Shown here: positions 10,154-17,166 of the stretch, one piece after another
How the letters are laid out: each line of letters starts with the position of its first letter
Position numbering within the stretch: position 1 is the stretch's first letter
Notes under the pieces: model-generated
What the model saw: the letters and a program-made list of their open reading frames with translations, nothing else
Database searches by the model: none
What the model was told of the DNA's origin: nothing
Program-made: the position numbers and the translations under genes
Assembly: GCA_025774805.1 (NCBI GenBank)
Contig: JALGZR010000074.1
Span: forward strand, 1 to 19,573
Direction of reading: 5' to 3'
DNA length: 19,573 nucleotides
From: a bacterium
GTDB taxonomy: Bacteria > ARS69

Positions 10154-10274
10154 CATACGACGCGGGACGCGGGCGCTCGTCGTGATCCTGGTTCTGGGCG
10201 CCGTGATCGCGATCGCCGGGTCGGCGCTTTTCTGGTCCGGACGATTCGATCACCTTCCCTATCGGTGGTTCTGA
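10131..10274 (+). CDS. Small single-pass membrane protein (47 residues)
   Basis: A short frame overlapping the end of the GT-C-like gene in a different frame. The start is well supported: AAGGAG at 10116-10121, 9 bases before the ATG. It encodes MSGGDLSDIRRGTRALVVIL followed by VLGAVIAIAGSALFW and the tail SGRFDHLPYRWF, stop TGA 10272-10274. One transmembrane helix (about residues 15-35) follows a short basic segment, so the N-terminus is probably cytoplasmic by the positive-inside rule, with a short aromatic-rich C-tail outside. I recognise no family. Translational coupling to the upstream membrane protein suggests it is a partner or accessory subunit. A real gene is likely because a strong ribosome site, a start and a membrane segment coincide; absence of homologues would weaken this. 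Confidence 0.6.
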   Translation: MSGGDLSDIRRGTRALVVILVLGAVIAIAGSALFWSGRFDHLPYRWF

Positions 10275-10300
10275 GGAGAGAAAGGTCCGGGTTCCGAGCC

Positions 10301-10897
10301 ATGGTCGATTCCCCTTCTCGGCGCGTGAAACGATTGCGCGAGGACATCGTCTTCGAGACGACGCTTCGGGGGCGTTCGTTCACGTTTCACTCGACCTGGG
10401 GTCTCTTCTCTCCGCGGGGGATCGACGAGGGCACCCGGCTCCTGATCGAGCATCTCGAGGTCGGCCCGGACGCCGACGGACTCGACCTGGGCTGCGGCTA
10501 CGGCCCCATCGGGCTGGCGCTGGCCCACCTCGCACCGAGGGGCCGAGCCTGCCTCGTGGACAAGGACTTCGTGGCGGTCGAGTACAGTCGGAGGAACGCG
10601 AAGCGAAACCGTCTGGGGAACTGCGAGGCGTTCTTGAGCAACGGATTCGACCGGGTCGGGGAACGCCGCTTCGACATCGTGGCATCGAACATCCCGGCCA
10701 AGGTGGGCAACGAGATGCTCACCCTCTACCTCCACGACTCCCTCACCCACCTGAAACCCGGGGGGCAACTCTGGATCGTCTCGCTCAGCGGACTTCGGCG
10801 TTTCTTCGCCCGAGCCCTGCGGGAGGTGTTCGGCAACTACAAGAAGATCAAGCAGGGAAGGAATCACACGGTCTCTCGGGCGACGAAGCCGGGCTAG
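10301..10897 (+). CDS. RsmC/RlmG-like class I SAM methyltransferase
   Basis: A 198-residue cytoplasmic methyltransferase of the MTS (small-domain) type. The family start pattern FETTLRGRSFTFHSTWGLFS is followed by motif I LDLGCGYGPIG (residues 61-71), LVDKDFVAVEYSRRNAKRN, and the motif IV region ASNIPAKVGNEML (128-140) in place of the canonical NPPF/Y, then GGQLWIVSLSGLRRFF. Bacterial relatives methylate guanine N2 in rRNA (RsmC), but this short form lacks the N-terminal duplicated domain, so the exact target is open. I chose ATG 10301. A GTG at 10265 extends the protein by 12 residues and overlaps the small gene before it; the GAGGAG at 10273-10278 fits neither start well. The TAG stop (10895-10897) lies inside the palindromic repeat that begins at 10894. 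Confidence 0.83.
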   Translation: MVDSPSRRVKRLREDIVFETTLRGRSFTFHSTWGLFSPRGIDEGTRLLIEHLEVGPDADGLDLGCGYGPIGLALAHLAPRGRACLVDKDFVAVEYSRRNAKRNRLGNCEAFLSNGFDRVGERRFDIVASNIPAKVGNEMLTLYLHDSLTHLKPGGQLWIVSLSGLRRFFARALREVFGNYKKIKQGRNHTVSRATKPG

Positions 10898-10971
10898 CCT
10901 GCATGTCTCACGAGGCTCTGCTGCGGCAGCGGCGAAGCCGCGCGACGAGCCTGGTGAGAAATGCAGGCTAG
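10894..10971. repeat. Palindromic repeat family, copy A (short form, 78 bp)
   Basis: The left arm, 10894-10918 (CTAGCCTGCATGTCTCAC...), is the inverse of the right arm, 10947-10971 (...GGTGAGAAATGCAGGCTAG), with 2 mismatches in 25. The 28-base centre holds a small nested stem GCGGC-GAA-GCCGC. Related copies are at 12777, 14607 and 17148. The left end supplies the stop codon of the preceding methyltransferase gene; the right end lies 63 bases before the aldo/keto reductase start. As RNA it would form a very long stem and could act as a terminator or 3'-end stabiliser. Confidence 0.85.
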
Positions 10972-11034
10972 CGGATGCGCCGGCCTCCGCGAATTCGTCG
11001 ACTCGAGAGGCTCGGCCCACAGGAGGGACGCACG

Positions 11035-12075
11035 ATGAAGCACAGACTCTTGGGTCGCAGCGGGGTCCGGGTCTCCGAGCTCTGCCTCGGCACGATGACG
11101 TTCGGGGAAGACTGGGGCTGGGGAGCGTCCAAGAAGGAAAGCCGCAGAATTTTCGACGCCTACGTGAGCGCCGGAGGCAATTTCATCGACACCGCGATCA
11201 ACTACACGAACGGGACGAGTGAGAGGTACGTCGGCGAGATGATCTCTTCGGATCGCGACCACTTCGTGCTCGCGACGAAATACACTCTCAGTACGCATCC
11301 GGAGGACCCGAACCGGTCCGGGAATCATCGCAAGAACATGGCTCGATCGGTCGAGGCCAGTCTGAAGCGCCTCGGGACGGACTACATCGATCTCTACTGG
11401 CTCCACGCCTGGGACTTCACGACGGGAATCGACGAGGTCATGCGGGCGTTCGACGATCTCGTGCGGGCCGGCAAGATTCTCTACGCGGGCGTGTCCGACG
11501 CTCCGGCCTGGATCGTCTCCTCCGCGAACACGCTGGCGGATCTCCGAGGCTGGAGTCCGTTCGCGGGCTTGCAGATCGAGTACAGCCTGATCGAGCGAAC
11601 TCCGGAGCGCGACCTGCTCCCGATGGCCGAGCACTTCGATCTCGGCGTGCTCGCGTGGTCCCCCCTCGGGTCCGGGGTCCTGACCGGGAAGTACAAGTCC
11701 CTCGCCGACGGGGGCGCGGGAAAGGGACGCCTCACCGAGGGAAGTCGGCGGCTTTCCGAGAAGAACCTCGAGATCGCGCGGGCGGTCGGCGAGACCGCCG
11801 AGAAGCTGGGGAGCTCACCGTCCCGGGTCGCGATCGCGTGGCTGCGCCAGCGGCCCGGCGTCGTCATCCCCATGATCGGGGCGCGCACCCTCGCCCAGAT
11901 CGAGGACAACCTCGCCGCCGTCGGTCTCGCCCTTCCCGACGAGGACACGGAACGTCTGAACCGGGTCAGTGCGATCGAGATGGGCTTCCCGATGGACTTC
12001 CTCCGGCTCGACACGATCCGGGACATCATCTACGGAACGGCGCGGGGACAGTTCGACTTCCACCGGGGCGTGTGA
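11035..12075 (+). CDS. Aldo/keto reductase
   Basis: A 346-residue cytoplasmic NAD(P)H-dependent oxidoreductase of the aldo/keto reductase superfamily, a TIM barrel that reduces aldehydes or ketones. The N-terminus MKHRLLGRSGVRVSELCLGT is typical. The catalytic tetrad is visible: D52 and Y57 in FIDTAINYTNG, K82 in LATKYTLS, H124 in LYWLHAWD. The phosphate-binding end of the barrel is IPMIGARTLAQIEDNLAAV. The sequence most resembles AKRs annotated as YakC/potassium-channel-beta-like general reductases. AGGAGG lies 8 bases before ATG 11035, which decides the start over in-frame codons from 10975. The 3' end overlaps the convergent HD-domain gene by 46 bases (12030-12075). Physiological substrate unknown. 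Confidence 0.93.
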   Translation: MKHRLLGRSGVRVSELCLGTMTFGEDWGWGASKKESRRIFDAYVSAGGNFIDTAINYTNGTSERYVGEMISSDRDHFVLATKYTLSTHPEDPNRSGNHRKNMARSVEASLKRLGTDYIDLYWLHAWDFTTGIDEVMRAFDDLVRAGKILYAGVSDAPAWIVSSANTLADLRGWSPFAGLQIEYSLIERTPERDLLPMAEHFDLGVLAWSPLGSGVLTGKYKSLADGGAGKGRLTEGSRRLSEKNLEIARAVGETAEKLGSSPSRVAIAWLRQRPGVVIPMIGARTLAQIEDNLAAVGLALPDEDTERLNRVSAIEMGFPMDFLRLDTIRDIIYGTARGQFDFHRGV

Positions 12076-12635
12076 GGGGCGAGCGTCCCGGCCCCCTCGA
12101 CCGACAGCACCTCGCCCAGCAGCTCCTCCGCCACCTTTCGGGTCGCGGGGTGCTCGAAGGCGGGACCCTCGGGGCCGCGGCGCAACATCTTCTCGGTCAA
12201 CGGGTGACCGGCGTCGCGGTACGCCTCCGCCTGGAGCAGAAACTCGAGGTGGTCGACGGCGCGCACGAGCTTCGCCTCCTCCGATTCGCCCGCGCGCAGC
12301 TCGGTCAAAAGAATCCGGACCTCCCGGTCCTCTCCCCACTGCTCGCGCTGGATCCGTACCTCGGCGGCCTCGATCGCCTCCCGGGACAGATAGGCCTTCG
12401 ACGGGTCGGGGATGTCGGTGAGGCGCGCTTCGTGGACATCGTGCAGCAACATCATCAAGAGGACCTTGGCCGCGTCGAGCCCGGGAAGCTCGCGGGCCAG
12501 GCGCCAGGCGAGCAGGGCGGCGGCGAAGGAGTGGTCCGCCACCGACTCCGGGTGAACGATTCCGGCCCGGAACCAGCCGGCCCGGGGCATGCGCTTGAGC
12601 CGGTGGAGATCACGAATCCAATCGGCGGAGATCAT
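12030..12635 (-). CDS. HD-domain phosphohydrolase, YfbR/HDDC2-like 5'-deoxynucleotidase
   Basis: A 201-residue cytoplasmic metal-dependent hydrolase of the HD superfamily (HD_3 type), whose relatives dephosphorylate deoxynucleoside 5'-monophosphates. The metal-binding residues are in place: H35 in PESVADHSFAAALLAW, H65-D66 in MMLLHDVHEARLTDIP, and D128 in KLVRAVDHLEFLLQAEAY. Start ATG 12635 is preceded by a GAGGGAG ribosome site at 7 bases. The frame is open to 12908, but that extension translates the palindromic repeat and is not family-like. A strong leader hairpin (12674-12707) lies just upstream. The last ~15 residues (PHTPRWKSNCPRAVP) are encoded antisense to the end of the aldo/keto reductase gene. 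The nucleotidase role is inferred from family. Confidence 0.86.
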   Translation of the reverse strand: MISADWIRDLHRLKRMPRAGWFRAGIVHPESVADHSFAAALLAWRLARELPGLDAAKVLLMMLLHDVHEARLTDIPDPSKAYLSREAIEAAEVRIQREQWGEDREVRILLTELRAGESEEAKLVRAVDHLEFLLQAEAYRDAGHPLTEKMLRRGPEGPAFEHPATRKVAEELLGEVLSVEGAGTLAPHTPRWKSNCPRAVP

Positions 12636-12673
12636 CGGAAGGCTCCCTCTCGGCCGCGGGGTCGATGCTCGAC

Positions 12674-12707
12674 CGCTCCGGGGCGGCCGGTCGGCCGCAC
12701 CGGAGCG
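12674..12707 (-). promoter_or_regulatory. Long leader hairpin upstream of the HD-domain gene
   Basis: CGCTCCGGGGCGGCC (12674-12688) pairs with GGCCGCACCGGAGCG (12693-12707), 14 of 15, around the 4-base loop GGTC. On the minus-strand RNA three more pairs (one G-U) extend the base. It ends 39 bases before the ATG at 12635, so it would be in the 5' leader. It could be an attenuator, a protein-binding stem or an mRNA stabiliser. No U-tract follows. It shares no sequence with the palindromic repeat family next to it. Confidence 0.5.
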
Positions 12708-12776
12708 ATCCTCGATCGCGAGTTGGCGAGGCCTCATCCTACCCAAATCGCCCGGACTGCCGCCCGGAGAAACTGA

Positions 12777-12954
12777 CCTGCATATCTCACCAGCCTCTGC
12801 TGCGGCCGCGGCAAAGCCGCGCCTGGCCTCGTCGTTGGGGCGCTTCCGCCCTGCGACGGGGCTACGGCCCCGCCTCGGGCGAAAGCACTCCATCTCCTCG
12901 CCAGACACGATTATCCGCTGCCTCGCGACGAGCCTGGTGAGAAATGTAGGCTAG
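12777..12954. repeat. Palindromic repeat family, copy B (long form, ~178 bp)
   Basis: The left arm begins CCTGCATATCTCACCAGCCT (12777) and the right arm ends GGTGAGAAATGTAGGCTAG (12954). The outer parts match copy A closely (CTCTGCTGCGG, AAGCCGCGC, GACGAGCCTGGTGAGAAATG). Between 12822 and 12927 this copy has 104 extra bases containing a two-tier hairpin: GCTTCCGCCC/GGGCGAAAGC outside (12842-12851, 12877-12886; 9 of 10) and CGGGGC/GCCCCG inside. It lies between the divergent HD-domain and ECF sigma genes. Confidence 0.8.
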
Positions 12955-13163
12955 AAGAAAATCCGGAGTCGCGTGTAATTCCGGATGAAGGCACGATCGG
13001 GGGCGGCACGGAGGCCCGGTTCAGGAGGGGTGCCGGGTCGCCCGGGGCCGCCCCCCGGTCGGTCGTCGGTCGGCGTCGAGGACACCCGCCGTGGGCGGCG
13101 CCGTCACGGCCGTCGGTCGGGTCGGAGGCCGGCCCGCCGAAGAACCGCCGGAGAGAGGTCGCG
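12955..13163. other. Non-coding stretch upstream of the ECF sigma operon
   Basis: Together with the leader and copy B this completes a 528-base gene-free gap (12636-13163). I see no credible ORF. It has a 7-bp inverted repeat ATCCGGA/TCCGGAT (12961-12967, 12980-12986) with a 12-base loop, which could be an operator, and several GTCGGTCG-type tandem motifs around 13058-13075 and 13110-13120. No consensus sigma-70 promoter was found, which would fit an autoregulated ECF promoter whose sequence I cannot predict. Confidence 0.35.
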
Positions 13164-13745
13164 ATGGTGACCGCCTGGAACGAGACCGCCGAGGCCGAAT
13201 CGAGACTGATCGCGCACGCTCGCGCCGGGGACGACGCGGCGTTCGGGGAGCTGGTTCGGAGATCCATGCGGCGGGCGTACGCGGTGGCCCTCGGTCTCGT
13301 GGGCTCTCCCGACGATGCCCTCGACCTTTCACAGGAGGCCTTCGTCCGCGCCTACCGGGCGCGGGAAAAGCTCGACCCGGAGCGCCCGTTCTACGCGTGG
13401 ATTCACACGATCCTCCGCCGGCTCTGCTTCAACTTCAACCGGGATCGCCGCACGCGGCGGGAGAAGATCGCGTCCGCCGGTCCCTGGTTGGCCGAAGAGG
13501 CGGCGGCTCGGGGTCGCGCCGACGACCCCGATCGAGTGCTCGAGCGCAAGGAGCTGAGGCGAAAGCTCACCGCCGCGATCGAGGATCTTCCCGGGCGGGA
13601 GCGGGAGGTCCTCGTGCTCAAGGAGTTCGAGGGGCTCCGCTATCGGGAGATCGCCGAGCTTCTGGACATCCCCATCGGGACGGTCACTTCCCGTCTCTAC
13701 AGTGCCCGGCAGCGATTGGCCCGAGCCCTGGAGGAAGAAGGATGA
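13164..13745 (+). CDS. ECF-family RNA polymerase sigma factor (sigma-70 family)
   Basis: A 193-residue transcription initiation factor with only regions sigma2 and sigma4. Sigma2 spans about residues 24-92 (FGELVRRSMRRAYAVALGLV, then DDALDLSQEAFVRAYRA, FYAWIHTILRRLCFNFNRDR). An acidic linker follows, then sigma4 at about 132-187 (IEDLPGREREVLVLKEFEGL, then RYREIAELLDIPIGTVTSRL and YSARQRLARAL, the helix-turn-helix). The ATG at 13164 has GAGAGAGG 6 bases upstream. Its TGA overlaps the next ATG (ATGA at 13742-13745), a translationally coupled arrangement typical of ECF sigma and anti-sigma pairs. It would recruit RNA polymerase to a small stress or envelope regulon; the signal is unknown. Confidence 0.95.
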   Translation: MVTAWNETAEAESRLIAHARAGDDAAFGELVRRSMRRAYAVALGLVGSPDDALDLSQEAFVRAYRAREKLDPERPFYAWIHTILRRLCFNFNRDRRTRREKIASAGPWLAEEAAARGRADDPDRVLERKELRRKLTAAIEDLPGREREVLVLKEFEGLRYREIAELLDIPIGTVTSRLYSARQRLARALEEEG

Positions 13746-14242
13746 ACGAATTCACCCCCGGGGACCGATCGCACCGTACCGGAAGCGGTGCCGCTCCGGA
13801 CCGGGAGAGGATGCATCACCTGATGATGGCGGCGCTCGACGGCGAGATCGGGCCGGAGGAGCGCGAGGAGTTCGACCGGGCTCTGGACCGGGACACCGCC
13901 CTGCGAAAGGAGTGGGAACGCATGACGCGCGTGAAGGAGGTCACGGCCGAAATGACCCTGCGCGAACCGCCGGCAGAGGTATGGGATGACTACTGGGAGG
14001 ATATCTATCGCCGGAACGAGCGCAAGGTGGCCTGGATTCTCGTCTCGATCGGAGCCTCGTTGCTCCTCGGATACGGGATCTTCGAGTTCGTCCGCGAGAT
14101 CGTCGGCGATTCGACCCTGCCGGTGATCGTGAAGGGGGGACTCCTCTTCGCGGCTCTCGGCGGCGCGATCCTCGTCGTCTCGGTGATCCGCGAGCGGCTT
14201 TTCCTCCACCGCCGCGATCCCTACCGGGAGGTGCAGCGATGA
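13742..14242 (+). CDS. Membrane-bound anti-sigma-factor-like protein lacking the zinc ligands
   Basis: A 166-residue protein overlapping the ECF sigma gene by ATGA. Residues 24-60 (MHHLMMAALDGEIGPEEREE, then FDRALDRDTALRKEWERM) fit the zf-HC2/anti-sigma helical layout, but the Cys ligands are absent; only histidines 25-26 remain at the first ligand position. A linker WDDYWEDIYRRNERK leads to two membrane helices, about 95-113 (VAWILVSIGASLLLGYGIF) and 130-150 (KGGLLFAALGGAILVVSVIR), then a charged tail RERLFLHRRDPYREVQR. Both ends are probably cytoplasmic. The inferred role is to hold the sigma factor at the membrane until a signal arrives. Its stop overlaps the next start (ATGA at 14239-14242). 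Call rests partly on context. Confidence 0.72.
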   Translation: MNEFTPGDRSHRTGSGAAPDRERMHHLMMAALDGEIGPEEREEFDRALDRDTALRKEWERMTRVKEVTAEMTLREPPAEVWDDYWEDIYRRNERKVAWILVSIGASLLLGYGIFEFVREIVGDSTLPVIVKGGLLFAALGGAILVVSVIRERLFLHRRDPYREVQR

Positions 14243-14610
14243 TCATCACGCCCGGATCGAGCATCGCCGGACACCGGATCGTCGAGACCCTCGGGATCGT
14301 GAAGGGGAACACGATTCGCGCCCGGCACGTCGGAAACGACATCCTCGCCGGACTGAAGAACCTCGTCGGCGGGGAGATCCAGGAATACACGAAGATGATG
14401 GCGGAGGCACGGGAGCAGTCGCTCGACCGCATGGTCGCCGACGCGAAGGAGCTCGGGGCGAACGCCGTCGTCGACGTCCGCTTCGGCACCTCGTACCTGA
14501 TGAGCTCCGCCGCCGAGATCCTCGCCTACGGAAACGCCGTGCGGATCGAGAAGATCGAGAGGGTGGAGGCCGGGCCTCTCGAGGAAAGCCCGGAGGAGAA
14601 CTCGGGCTAG
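14239..14610 (+). CDS. YbjQ/UPF0145 family protein (heavy-metal-binding-domain annotation)
   Basis: This 123-residue cytoplasmic protein follows the YbjQ/UPF0145 pattern: IAGHRIVETLGIVKGNTIRA, RHVGNDILAGLKNLVGGEIQ (the family's GGE), EYTKMMAEAREQSLDRM, then AKELGANAVVDVRFGTS (the GANAVV signature) and a last strand AYGNAVRIEKI. Members form pentameric or decameric rings; a biochemical role is not established despite the heavy-metal-binding annotation. Third gene of the ECF sigma operon, coupled by ATGA with the anti-sigma-like gene, which suggests it takes part in or is a target of that response. The acidic tail ends in Gly-stop, with GGC-TAG coming from the start of palindromic repeat copy C. 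Confidence 0.9.
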   Translation: MIITPGSSIAGHRIVETLGIVKGNTIRARHVGNDILAGLKNLVGGEIQEYTKMMAEAREQSLDRMVADAKELGANAVVDVRFGTSYLMSSAAEILAYGNAVRIEKIERVEAGPLEESPEENSG

Positions 14611-14674
14611 CCTGCATTTCTCACCGGCTTCCGCCGTGGAAGCGGAGTCGCCGCTTGACGGGGCTCGGTGAGAT
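14607..14674. repeat. Palindromic repeat family, copy C (right arm decayed)
   Basis: The left arm CTAGCCTGCATTTCTCACCG (14607-14626) is the cleanest copy of the family. The right side retains only CTCGGTGAGAT (14664-14674). The centre is different from copies A and B and carries AAGCGG-AGTCG-CCGCTT. The stop codon of the YbjQ gene (14608-14610) lies in the repeat, and the right end is 15 bases before the PPK2 ATG. Confidence 0.7.
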
Positions 14675-14689
14675 CCCAAGAATACCCCC

Positions 14690-15565
14690 ATGTTCGAGGC
14701 TTCTCGCCATCGCTTTCTCGTGCCGTTCGACGGCTCGTTTCGTGTCGACGGGGCACCCACCTCGCCCCCCAAGGCCGTCTCCATGAAGAAGAAGGAGGCG
14801 CGCGCACGGCTCGCGAAGCGCGTCGACGAGCTCGACGACCTCCAGCGCCGTCTCTACGCCGACGCCCGCTTCTCCGTTCTCCTCGTGTTCGAGGCGATGG
14901 ACGCGGCGGGGAAGGATGGTACGATCCGAGCCGTGATGAGCGGCGTGAACCCCGCCGGCTGTCAGGTCTTCTCGTTCAAGAAGCCGTCCTACGAGGAGCT
15001 CGATCACGATTTCCTCTGGCGGACGGCCCGCCGGCTGCCCGAGCGAGGGCGCATCGGCGTCTTCAACCGCAGCTACTACGAGGAGGTGCTCGTCGTCCGG
15101 GTCCACCCGGAGCTGCTGCATTTCCAGCGCCTGCCGTACCGGCCGAAGGGCCGGCGCCTCTGGCGCGATCGTTACGAGTCGATCCGGGACCACGAAAAGC
15201 ACCTCGCGCGAAACGGCACCATCATTCTGAAGTTCTGGCTCAACGTTTCCCGCGAGGAGCAGAGGAAGCGCTTCCTCTCGCGCATCGACGAGCCGGAGAA
15301 GAACTGGAAGTTCGAGCCGGCCGACTGCCGAGAGCGCGGTTTCTGGGACGCGTACATGGCGGCGTACCAGGACGCGTTGAACGAGACGTCCCGCGCCTGG
15401 GCGCCGTGGTACGCCATTCCCGCGGACGACAAGCCGTTCATGCGATTCGCCGTGGCGGAGATCGTCGTGGACGCCCTGAAATCGCTCGGGCTCTCCTATC
15501 CGGACGTCGACCACGAGACGCGTGGGCGCCTCCAGGAGATGCGCGACCTCCTGGCGGACGAGTAG
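14690..15565 (+). CDS. ppk2: Polyphosphate kinase 2 family nucleotide phosphotransferase
   Basis: A 291-residue cytoplasmic kinase that moves phosphate between inorganic polyphosphate and nucleotides. Residues 66-77 hold the Walker A (VFEAMDAAGKDG), followed by MSGVNPAGCQVFSFKKPSYEE, HDFLWRTARRLPERGRIGVF and the Walker B/lid start NRSYYEEVLVVRVHPE. Further on are KFWLNVSREEQRKRFLSRID and NWKFEPADCRERGFWDAYMA, all conserved. The FNRSYYEEV form and length look most like the class that phosphorylates AMP and/or ADP (class III type), but subclass is inference. The N-terminal ~50 residues also fit the family, which supports ATG 14690 although it has no ribosome site and lies next to repeat copy C. 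ATG 14783 is a shorter alternative. It is probably transcribed apart from the sigma operon. Confidence 0.93.
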   Translation: MFEASRHRFLVPFDGSFRVDGAPTSPPKAVSMKKKEARARLAKRVDELDDLQRRLYADARFSVLLVFEAMDAAGKDGTIRAVMSGVNPAGCQVFSFKKPSYEELDHDFLWRTARRLPERGRIGVFNRSYYEEVLVVRVHPELLHFQRLPYRPKGRRLWRDRYESIRDHEKHLARNGTIILKFWLNVSREEQRKRFLSRIDEPEKNWKFEPADCRERGFWDAYMAAYQDALNETSRAWAPWYAIPADDKPFMRFAVAEIVVDALKSLGLSYPDVDHETRGRLQEMRDLLADE

Positions 15566-15591
15566 CAGACCCGCAGTCCATCCCACGATGG

Positions 15592-16494
15592 GTGATCGGA
15601 CGAACCTTGATCGGTGAGACCTGTGCTCTTCTCGCGGCGTTGACCTGGGCCTTCGCCCTCGTGCTCTTCAAGCTGAGTGTCGAGGACGTTCCACCGATCG
15701 CGCTCAACCTCTTCAAGAACGTCGTCGCCCTGCTCTTCTTCGGGATCACCCTCCTGATCCTGACCGACGACGGCCGAGATCTCGCGCGATACACACGAGG
15801 TGATTTCGGGATTCTCCTCCTGAGCGGCATCCTAGGGATCGCGGCGGCCGACACCCTGTTCTTCCGCAGCCTCGACTTGATCGGGGTCGGGATCACGGTG
15901 GTCGTGGACTGTCTCTACAGCCCGTTCGTGATTCTCTTCGCCCACCTCCTTCTGTCGGAGACGCTCGCCCCCCATCAGTACGTGGGCACGGCGCTGATCG
16001 TCGGCGCCGTTCTCCTTTCCACGGGACACGTTCCCCCGGCCGGGCGGACCCGGGGTCAGCTCGTTTACGGAATTGTCCTGGGAGTCTCGAGCATGGCGGT
16101 GATGACGTTCGGTATCGTCATCGCGAAGCCCGTGCTCGACGGGAGGGACTTCCCCCTCATCTGGGCGACGGCGATCCGCCTGGTCGCCGGGGCGCTCGCC
16201 CTGGCGATTCTGGCGCTCGTCTCCCCGCGACGAAATGCTTACTGGGCGGTTTTCCGCCCGTCGCGAATCTGGAAGTTCAGCGTGCCCGCCTCGTTTCTCG
16301 GGGCCTACCTGGCGATGATCTTCTGGGTCGCCGGGTTCAAGTACGCGAAGGCCTCGATCGCCGGGATCCTGAACCAGACCTCCATCATCTTCGCCGTCAT
16401 TCTGGCCACGCTGATCCTCAAGGAGGAGATGACGCGTCGTAAGTTGGTCGCCGTGATCACGGCGACCCTCGGCGTCGTCGTCGTGTCGATGTGA
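15592..16494 (+). CDS. EamA/DMT-superfamily transporter
   Basis: A 300-residue inner-membrane protein with ten hydrophobic helices arranged as two EamA repeats. The first begins GETCALLAALTWAFALVLFK and includes GILGIAAADTLFFRSLDLIG and AHLLLSETLAPHQYVGTALI. The second begins GIVLGVSSMAVMTFGIVIAK and includes MIFWVAGFKYAKASIAGILN and LATLILKEEMTRRKLVAVI. The family exports or imports small metabolites such as amino acids or sugars; the substrate cannot be assigned. The start is uncertain: GTG 15592 gives the expected short N-terminus, TTG 15607 is possible, and neither has a clear ribosome site. The ATG at 15588 is in another frame and soon stops. It lies 26 bases after PPK2 and is probably co-transcribed with it. 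Confidence 0.85.
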   Translation: MIGRTLIGETCALLAALTWAFALVLFKLSVEDVPPIALNLFKNVVALLFFGITLLILTDDGRDLARYTRGDFGILLLSGILGIAAADTLFFRSLDLIGVGITVVVDCLYSPFVILFAHLLLSETLAPHQYVGTALIVGAVLLSTGHVPPAGRTRGQLVYGIVLGVSSMAVMTFGIVIAKPVLDGRDFPLIWATAIRLVAGALALAILALVSPRRNAYWAVFRPSRIWKFSVPASFLGAYLAMIFWVAGFKYAKASIAGILNQTSIIFAVILATLILKEEMTRRKLVAVITATLGVVVVSM

Positions 16495-16500
16495 CGCGGT

Positions 16501-16515
16501 CGGGCCCGCGGCCCG
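16501..16515. terminator. Short GC hairpin between convergent genes
   Basis: CGGGCC-CGC-GGCCCG (16501-16515) is a 6-bp perfect stem with a triloop in the 26-base gap between the convergent EamA and DinB-like genes, a sensible place for a bidirectional terminator. No T-tract on either strand, so low confidence. Confidence 0.35.
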
Positions 16516-16520
16516 TCCCC

Positions 16521-17066
16521 TCAGGATCCCTTCTCTTCGAGATATGAACCCGGGGACTCGTTGAAGGCCTTCGAGCCTCCCCTCTCCACACTGAGGGATC
16601 GCCATCGATCCCCGGCATGGAGGCGTGCGACGTACACGATCTGACCGGTGTGATAGGCGTAGTGCGTGATCTGGCGGTTGATCGCCTGCAGAACCGTGTG
16701 CGGTTCCTTTCGAATGTGGACGATTCGCTCGAGGTCGTCCTGCGCGAGGGGCGCCAGCGCGTCGAAGAGGCGCTCCCAACCCTTCTCCCACCGTCGCCGG
16801 AGATCTTCCCGCGTGTCCGGCTCCGAAATCACGAACTCGGAATCTCGATCGCGATCGGGCTTTTCGCCGTCGGTGGTCAGAAAGTCCCGCCATCTCGAGA
16901 GCAGGTTTCCGGCAACGTGCTTCAGGAGGACGGCCGCGCTGTTCCCGGAACCCGCCGGCGCCTCGAAGAACTCCGAGTCGTCGAGCTGCTCGAGCGCGTC
17001 ATCGGAGAGCTGCTTGAGACGTCGCAGCTCCCTCAGCATGGTGTCGAGATACGATTCCTTCTTCAT
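16521..17066 (-). CDS. DinB-superfamily protein, DUF1572-like
   Basis: A 181-residue cytoplasmic four-helix protein. The three histidines that bind metal in DinB/YfiT-type folds are present: H50 in AAVLLKHVAGNLLSRWRDFL, and H135 and H139 in RQITHYAYHTGQIVYVARL. The opening MKKESYLDTMLRELRRLKQL and the segment LRRRWEKGWERLFDALAPL are typical of DUF1572. Some DinB-fold proteins are thiol-dependent transferases, but for DUF1572 no reaction is established. Start ATG 17066 has GGGAG about 6 bases upstream. It is convergent with the EamA gene and divergent from the glycosidase gene; the gap at 17067-17400 carries a solo repeat arm. Confidence 0.85.
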   Translation of the reverse strand: MKKESYLDTMLRELRRLKQLSDDALEQLDDSEFFEAPAGSGNSAAVLLKHVAGNLLSRWRDFLTTDGEKPDRDRDSEFVISEPDTREDLRRRWEKGWERLFDALAPLAQDDLERIVHIRKEPHTVLQAINRQITHYAYHTGQIVYVARLHAGDRWRSLSVERGGSKAFNESPGSYLEEKGS

Positions 17067-17147
17067 GGCTCACTCCCGGGACGGTCGGGATCGCTCCCCG
17101 TTCGCTTCGGCCTGCCGATCGAAAGACCGTCGGATCGGTCGAAGTCC

Positions 17148-17166
17148 AGCCTGCATTCCTCACCAG
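17148..17166. repeat. Palindromic repeat family, copy D (solo left arm)
   Basis: AGCCTGCATTCCTCACCAG matches the left arm of copies A-C with one or two changes. There is no matching right arm within 200 bases; the sequence turns AT-richer immediately after. It is a relic or a half-site. Confidence 0.6.

What the first reader, a model, noticed from the sequence alone, without database searches (positions are those of the whole stretch)
10894..17166. Dispersed palindromic repeat family, four copies in 6.3 kb
Four intergenic copies (10894-10971, 12777-12954, 14607-14674, 17148-17166) share the arm CTAGCCTGCATTTCTCACC and, where complete, its inverse GGTGAGAAATGCAGGCTAG. Copy A has 25-base arms with 2 mismatches. 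No copy was found in the first 10.8 kb, so they cluster. They resemble REP/MITE-type elements but I know no family with this sequence. If mobilised by a RAYT-like (Y1) or other transposase in trans, this would be a new element/transposase pair; otherwise they may be terminators or RNA-stabilising stems spread by copying.
Basis: partly seen in the sequence, partly recalled or inferred. Interest (0 to 1): 0.65.

Follow-up and report, generated by a model that had tools for sequence, protein, structure and literature searches.

The report
Mobile hairpin repeats across bacterial phyla
The four repeats are copies of a short transposable element present over 100 times in this genome and apparently moved by a borrowed IS1380-type enzyme; relatives in at least six bacterial groups keep the same folded single-strand hairpin while their sequences and ends change, which is unusual for such elements.

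Summary
Observation confirmed and extended. The arm occurs 245 times (at most 1 mismatch) in the 5.1-Mb genome; the element is 174 bp between two CTAG tetramers, with shorter deletion forms. It is a MITE. Matching 15-bp ends and 4-bp CTAG/CTAA flanks bound intact IS1380-family transposases in other genomes carrying the repeats, and a copy inside dnaE2 of a single-contig genome is a clean insertion with a 4-bp duplication. No Y1/RAYT gene was found. The own genome keeps only one IS1380 fragment.

The new part: the whole element is one hairpin whose 140-nt core is shared by elements in Deltaproteobacteria, Gammaproteobacteria, Acidobacteria, Verrucomicrobia, Nitrospira and Eisenbacteria. Two loop motifs are nearly fixed, 34 of 37 modelled pairs covary, and core length is constant while terminal repeats differ. 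One strand is favoured (G-U 243, A-C 53), yet singleton changes in resident copies show no bias (15, 16) and orientation to genes is random. So the fold appears selected during propagation, not at resident sites. What reads the hairpin, and whether as RNA or single-stranded DNA, is not shown. No Rfam match and no description in the papers searched.

The parts
12773..12954 (-). Copy B: full-length element (182 bp with flanking 4-mers), hairpin strand is the minus strand
   Evidence: Model R1 113.9 bits, minus strand; RNA fold -116.4 kcal/mol, z -10.3, against -95.8 for the other strand
10894..10971 (-). Copy A: internally deleted element (78 bp) with both ends and CTAG on both sides
   Evidence: Model R1 69.8 bits, minus strand; fold z -8.5; arms
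14607..14674 (.). Copy C: exact left arm after CTAG, decayed remainder
17146..17164 (.). Copy D: single arm, 1 mismatch in the 15-mer, preceded by CCAG
12777..12791 (+). Terminal inverted repeat of copy B, one end (1 mismatch to CCTGCATTTCTCACC)
12936..12950 (-). Terminal inverted repeat of copy B, other end (1 mismatch)
10894..10897 (+). CTAG flank of copy A; its TAG is the stop codon of the methyltransferase ORF 10265-10897
14607..14610 (+). CTAG flank of copy C; its TAG is the stop codon of the YbjQ-like ORF 14239-14610

Best explanation
The repeats are copies, mostly old and some internally deleted, of a non-autonomous transposable element (MITE). Its 15-bp terminal inverted repeats are those of IS1380-family elements, whose DDE transposase most likely moves it in trans into CTAG-like tetramers with a 4-bp duplication (ends, flanks and one interrupted gene are shown; the act of transposition is inferred). 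The element is one ~182-nt hairpin. Its 140-nt core is an old module found across several phyla that keeps two loop motifs and its length while stems covary and the terminal repeats change type (shown). I infer that the fold of one particular strand, as RNA or single-stranded DNA, helps the element to copy itself or to establish in new hosts, and that resident copies then decay neutrally. The molecule that reads the hairpin is unknown.
For: Copy number and control. Intact IS1380 transposases bounded by the same ends and 4-bp flanks: L181 CTAG/CTAG, L173 CTAA/CTAA, L174 CTAG/CTAG, L283 CTAG/CTAG. Co-occurrence with IS1380 in 274 Gammaproteobacteria, 11/28 against 32/246, p 0.0012. Insertion in dnaE2: only one retained 4-mer restores the frame, and homologues align without a gap. 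Nine of 13 copies identical in one MAG. Covariation. Strand bias. Neutral decay of resident copies. Random orientation to genes. Core constant, ends variable.
Against: The own genome has only one IS1380 fragment, and 17 of 28 Gammaproteobacterial carriers show no PF13701 match, including no convincing one in the single-contig G265. IS1380 ends do not contain the core motifs. Identity of non-CTAG flanks in the MITEs is not above chance, so the 4-bp duplication rests on the IS copies and on dnaE2. No experiment shows movement or transcription. Fitted alignments and related sequences inflate the covariation and G-U counts.
Confidence: 0.8

Rival explanations
1. An ordinary IS-derived MITE: the hairpin is only a palindrome left by internal deletion or end duplication, spread by horizontal transfer, and the fold has no function.
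For: MITE transcripts commonly form stable stem-loops (PMC10969869). Resident copies decay neutrally. No orientation bias.
Against: Double changes in 34 of 37 core pairs, 631 cells against 227.6 shuffled; fixed non-paired motifs and constant core length across groups; consistent strand preference, G-U 243 against A-C 53. Unconstrained palindromes would lose pairing on both strands alike.
Confidence: 0.2
2. A structured RNA acting at each site (mRNA stabiliser, RNase III substrate or terminator) and kept by selection on the host.
For: Strand-specific fold; copies often abut gene 3' ends, 42 of 105.
Against: Co-directional neighbours: 20 same, 23 opposite orientation. Singleton changes show no G-U excess, 15 against 16. 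None of the terminator-like sites found lies on a copy. The 3'-end preference is largely that of CTAG itself.
Confidence: 0.07
3. A REP-type element moved by a Y1 (RAYT) transposase acting on single-stranded hairpins.
For: Strand-specific hairpin, many intergenic copies.
Against: No Y1_Tnp in the genome (the same search rings in 5 control genomes). The element is 182 bp with TIRs and 4-bp flanks shared with IS1380; REPs are 20-40 bp and tagged GTAG or CGTC at one end (PMC3733652). No replication-strand bias in G265 (7 against 8, low power).
Confidence: 0.03

Closest known systems
IS1380 family insertion sequences (used as the prokaryotic outgroup of piggyBac, PMC10813416)
   Same: Terminal repeats CCyGCATTTCTCACC and 4-bp YTAR-type flanks; a second end type is also shared with an IS1380-type gene.
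   Different: No gene; the IS ends lack the CGTnGCGAG / CGCAGyAG core motifs.
Hairpin-forming bacterial MITEs (ERIC, Correia/NEMIS, RUP, Nezha)
   Same: Short, non-coding, TIR-bounded, intergenic, transcripts would form long stem-loops (PMC10969869, PMC3733652).
   Different: Those are described from one or a few related lineages; here the core crosses phyla, with covarying stems and exchanged ends. Direct sequence comparison with them was not made, beyond the fact that no Rfam family matches.
Coxiella burnetii QMITE2
   Same: 150-190 bp, TIRs of 23-29 bp, core of 113-145 bp, long hairpin, transcribed (CbsR16) (PMC5896051, PMC10969869).
   Different: Direct repeats of 7-11 bp instead of 4. Sequence not fetched, relationship untested.
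REP / RAYT elements
   Same: Dispersed palindromes in many phyla.
   Different: 20-40 bp, tag tetranucleotides, Y1 transposase (PMC3733652); not met here.

Membership tests
MITE mobilised by IS1380 | Short non-coding element with terminal inverted repeats, many dispersed copies | tested here: met
MITE mobilised by IS1380 | Terminal repeats match an intact IS1380-family element | tested here: met
   L181 has CCTGCATTTCTCACC at one end (15/15), L283 has CCCGCATTTCTCACC at both ends; transposase is NF033539 at 405.6 bits
MITE mobilised by IS1380 | 4-bp target duplication | tested here: met
   IS flanks CTAA/CTAA and CTAG/CTAG; dnaE2 frame restored only with one 4-mer. Non-CTAG flanks of the MITEs alone are inconclusive
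MITE mobilised by IS1380 | Transposase source in the same genome | tested here: inconclusive
   Own genome: one 115-residue fragment. G006 and G293: intact IS1380 present
MITE mobilised by IS1380 | Movement in trans by that transposase | not testable with these tools
   Needs a transposition assay
REP / RAYT | Y1 transposase in the genome | tested here: not met
REP / RAYT | 20-40-bp palindrome tagged GTAG or CGTC at one end | tested here: not met
   174-bp element bounded by CTAG; REP definition from PMC3733652
Any Rfam family | Match at the gathering score | tested here: not met
   only sub-threshold miRNA-like hits
Coxiella QMITE2 | Sequence similarity of the core | not tested

The most novel reading that the evidence does not exclude
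A mobile hairpin of a kind not described before: a 140-nt single-strand structure, conserved across at least six phylum-level groups with covarying stems and two inverted GA-type loops, that itself takes part in propagation (as RNA or single-stranded DNA read by a widely conserved factor) and exchanges terminal repeats to ride on different IS1380/piggyBac-type transposases.
Probability: 0.4. Interest if true: 0.85.

Novelty: new variant of a known kind. Interest (0 to 1): 0.62.

Why it matters
MITEs are usually taken as deletion debris tied to one lineage. Here the sequence of the stems is almost free, but the fold of one strand, its length and two loop motifs are kept across phyla, while resident copies decay neutrally. 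That points to a structure used in spreading, and makes testable how a transposon without genes persists across hosts and across transposases. The models also let annotators recognise a family found in 33 of 274 sampled Gammaproteobacteria and 35 of 247 sampled Acidobacteriota.

Tried and rejected
Y1/RAYT search: none. Arm search in family/phylum with 1 mismatch: none outside the own genome, although the structure model finds 4 matches in G001 and 2 in G004. Plasmid search with the full element: none. Flank-identity permutation on non-CTAG flanks: not significant. Stop-codon targeting: 55/97 against 170/383 for other CTAG sites, so mostly a property of CTAG in this genome. Possible degenerate IS1380 in G265 at 1154048-1155604: two solo arms around an ordinary gene. 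Replication-strand bias in G265 (counted by hand): 7 against 8, low power. Deletion forms as evidence that the core is dispensable for movement: not used, because their junctions lie at short direct repeats and look like slippage in place. Sarcin-ricin, kink-turn, attC and single-strand-origin resemblances were considered from memory and not tested. Literature by sequence and by name: no description found.

Full report
OBSERVATION. The window is the whole contig C5 of a 5.10-Mb assembly of 284 contigs. Copy B, at 12773-12954, is the only full-length one; copy A (10894-10971) is an internal-deletion form, C is half decayed, D is a single arm. Shuffles give 0.33 arms where 7 are seen. In the whole genome the arm CCTGCATTTCTCACC occurs 245 times with at most one mismatch and its reversed control 0 times; a structure model gives 129 matches (a few places are counted on both strands).

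ANATOMY IN THIS GENOME. In 1.11 Mb taken out of the genome, 59 arm pairs fall into a class of about 174 bp (26 of 173-174 bp) and shorter classes of 47, 57-78 and 90 bp. The four bases outside the arm are CTAG (0.81-0.95 per position) and nothing further out is conserved. CTAG is rare here (305 in 1.11 Mb), and 97 arm ends abut one. Neighbouring copies can share a single CTAG. Thirty full copies give a 182-bp consensus at mean pairwise identity 0.88.

WHO MOVES IT. No Y1 transposase is present. A scan of one genome per species with the 19-mer hit contigs titled Deltaproteobacteria, Bryobacterales, Verrucomicrobia, Gammaproteobacteria, Nitrospira, Eisenbacteria and others. In 9 of 20 of these genomes IS1380-type transposase sequence was found. 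Intact ones are bounded by the same ends and 4-bp repeats: L181 (CTAG/CTAG), L173 (CTAA/CTAA), L174 (CTAG/CTAG), and L283, with perfect CCCGCATTTCTCACC ends and CTAG/CTAG, in a genome carrying many copies. The L283 protein is an IS1380 transposase by NCBIfam (405.6 bits). Elements and PF13701 co-occur in 274 Gammaproteobacteria (11/28 against 32/246, p 0.0012). The own genome has only a 115-residue fragment, so the family here is probably old, or its IS was lost or not binned.

PROOF OF INSERTION. In the single-contig genome G265 one copy lies inside dnaE2. Joining the flanks with one 4-mer restores the reading frame; with none or two it does not. The joined protein aligns without a gap across the junction to Polaromonas and Methylibium homologues. 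In one Deltaproteobacterial MAG 9 of 13 copies are identical, on different contigs or at different places.

THE CONSERVED HAIRPIN. Elements from the different groups share more than the ends. They fold as one long hairpin (L063: -127.9 kcal/mol, z -15.4; copy B of the window, minus strand: -116.4, z -10.3). An alignment of nine shows islands CGTnGCGAG and CGCAGyAG and a central hairpin, with stems that differ between groups. Covariation is strong in that sequence-based alignment (27 of 57 pairs; 61 double-change cells against 26 shuffled), in an 18-row one and in a core-only 58-row one (34 of 37 pairs; 631 cells against 227.6 +- 12.6; 90.5% paired against at most 42.6% when slid). The larger alignments were fitted to the structure and their rows are related, so the numbers are descriptive. 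One row of the 58 is a reverse-strand match and one is partial. By inspection of the folds, the internal loops at both ends of the core have the form C-GA-G opposite C-GCA-G, in opposite orientations; in the own family the apical one is flipped.

CORE AND ENDS EVOLVE SEPARATELY. A core-only model finds members in 33 of 274 Gammaproteobacteria and 35 of 247 Acidobacteriota. The core stays near 140 nt in nearly all, while the ends change: CCCGCATTTCTCACC, CCCGGATTATTCATGAGG, CCTAAATTAATCAGTTG, AAGCACTCCCTGTTCACC and others. An end of the CCTA...GCAGTT type also bounds an IS1380-type gene in G212, whose core elements carry CCTAAATTCAGCAGTTGG.

STRAND AND SELECTION. With the strand fixed by the loop motifs, that strand folds better in 30 of 30 own copies and in 54 of 57 cores. 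Wobble G-U pairs outnumber A-C mismatches 243 to 53, in 49 of 58 rows. But among changes seen in only one copy of the own genome, new G-U and new A-C are equal (15 and 16), and orientation to co-directional genes is random (20 and 23). Copies do prefer convergent over divergent gaps (31 against 11; background 88 and 91), as expected of insertions tolerated away from promoters. The simplest reading is that the fold is selected in the lineage that propagates and not at the resident sites. Whether the selected molecule is RNA or single-stranded DNA, and what binds it, is unknown.

COMPARISON. It works like a MITE and passes the tests for one moved by IS1380, except for direct transposition and the missing IS in this genome. 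It is not a REP, it is not an Rfam family, and no paper found describes it. Coxiella QMITE2 (PMC5896051) is similar in size and fold and was not compared. Novelty therefore lies in the cross-phylum, covarying, strand-specific core with exchangeable ends, not in the MITE habit itself.

Noticed in passing
L066:4841-5088, L114:2317-2565, L127:1506-1754, L149:1343-1633: Gammaproteobacterial elements of 240-290 bp have the same terminal repeats and CTAG flanks but a different interior without the core motifs; possibly a second hairpin family on the same ends.
   Followed up: no
L095:2100-2172, L116:1866-1938, L163:2298-2370, L064:4290-4362: Verrucomicrobial genomes carry a form of about 73 bp with the same ends at several places.
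   Followed up: no
G265 contig C1: Arms are unevenly spread: most lie in 0.06-1.84 Mb and few in 1.9-3.2 Mb of the 3.66-Mb single contig.
   Followed up: no
G000:C17:1747-2085 (L031): The only IS1380-type sequence of the own genome is a C-terminal fragment with no matching arm within 1.5 kb.
   Followed up: partly
L072, L096, L097, L117 and others of JAPPLB01: In a Bryobacterales MAG many elements contain an extra insert of ACGAATCACGA-type short repeats inside the hairpin.
   Followed up: no
Own genome, 1.11 Mb sampled: CTAG is about ten times rarer than base composition predicts (my estimate from GC 0.68), and a large share of CTAG sites sit at ends of these elements.
   Followed up: partly
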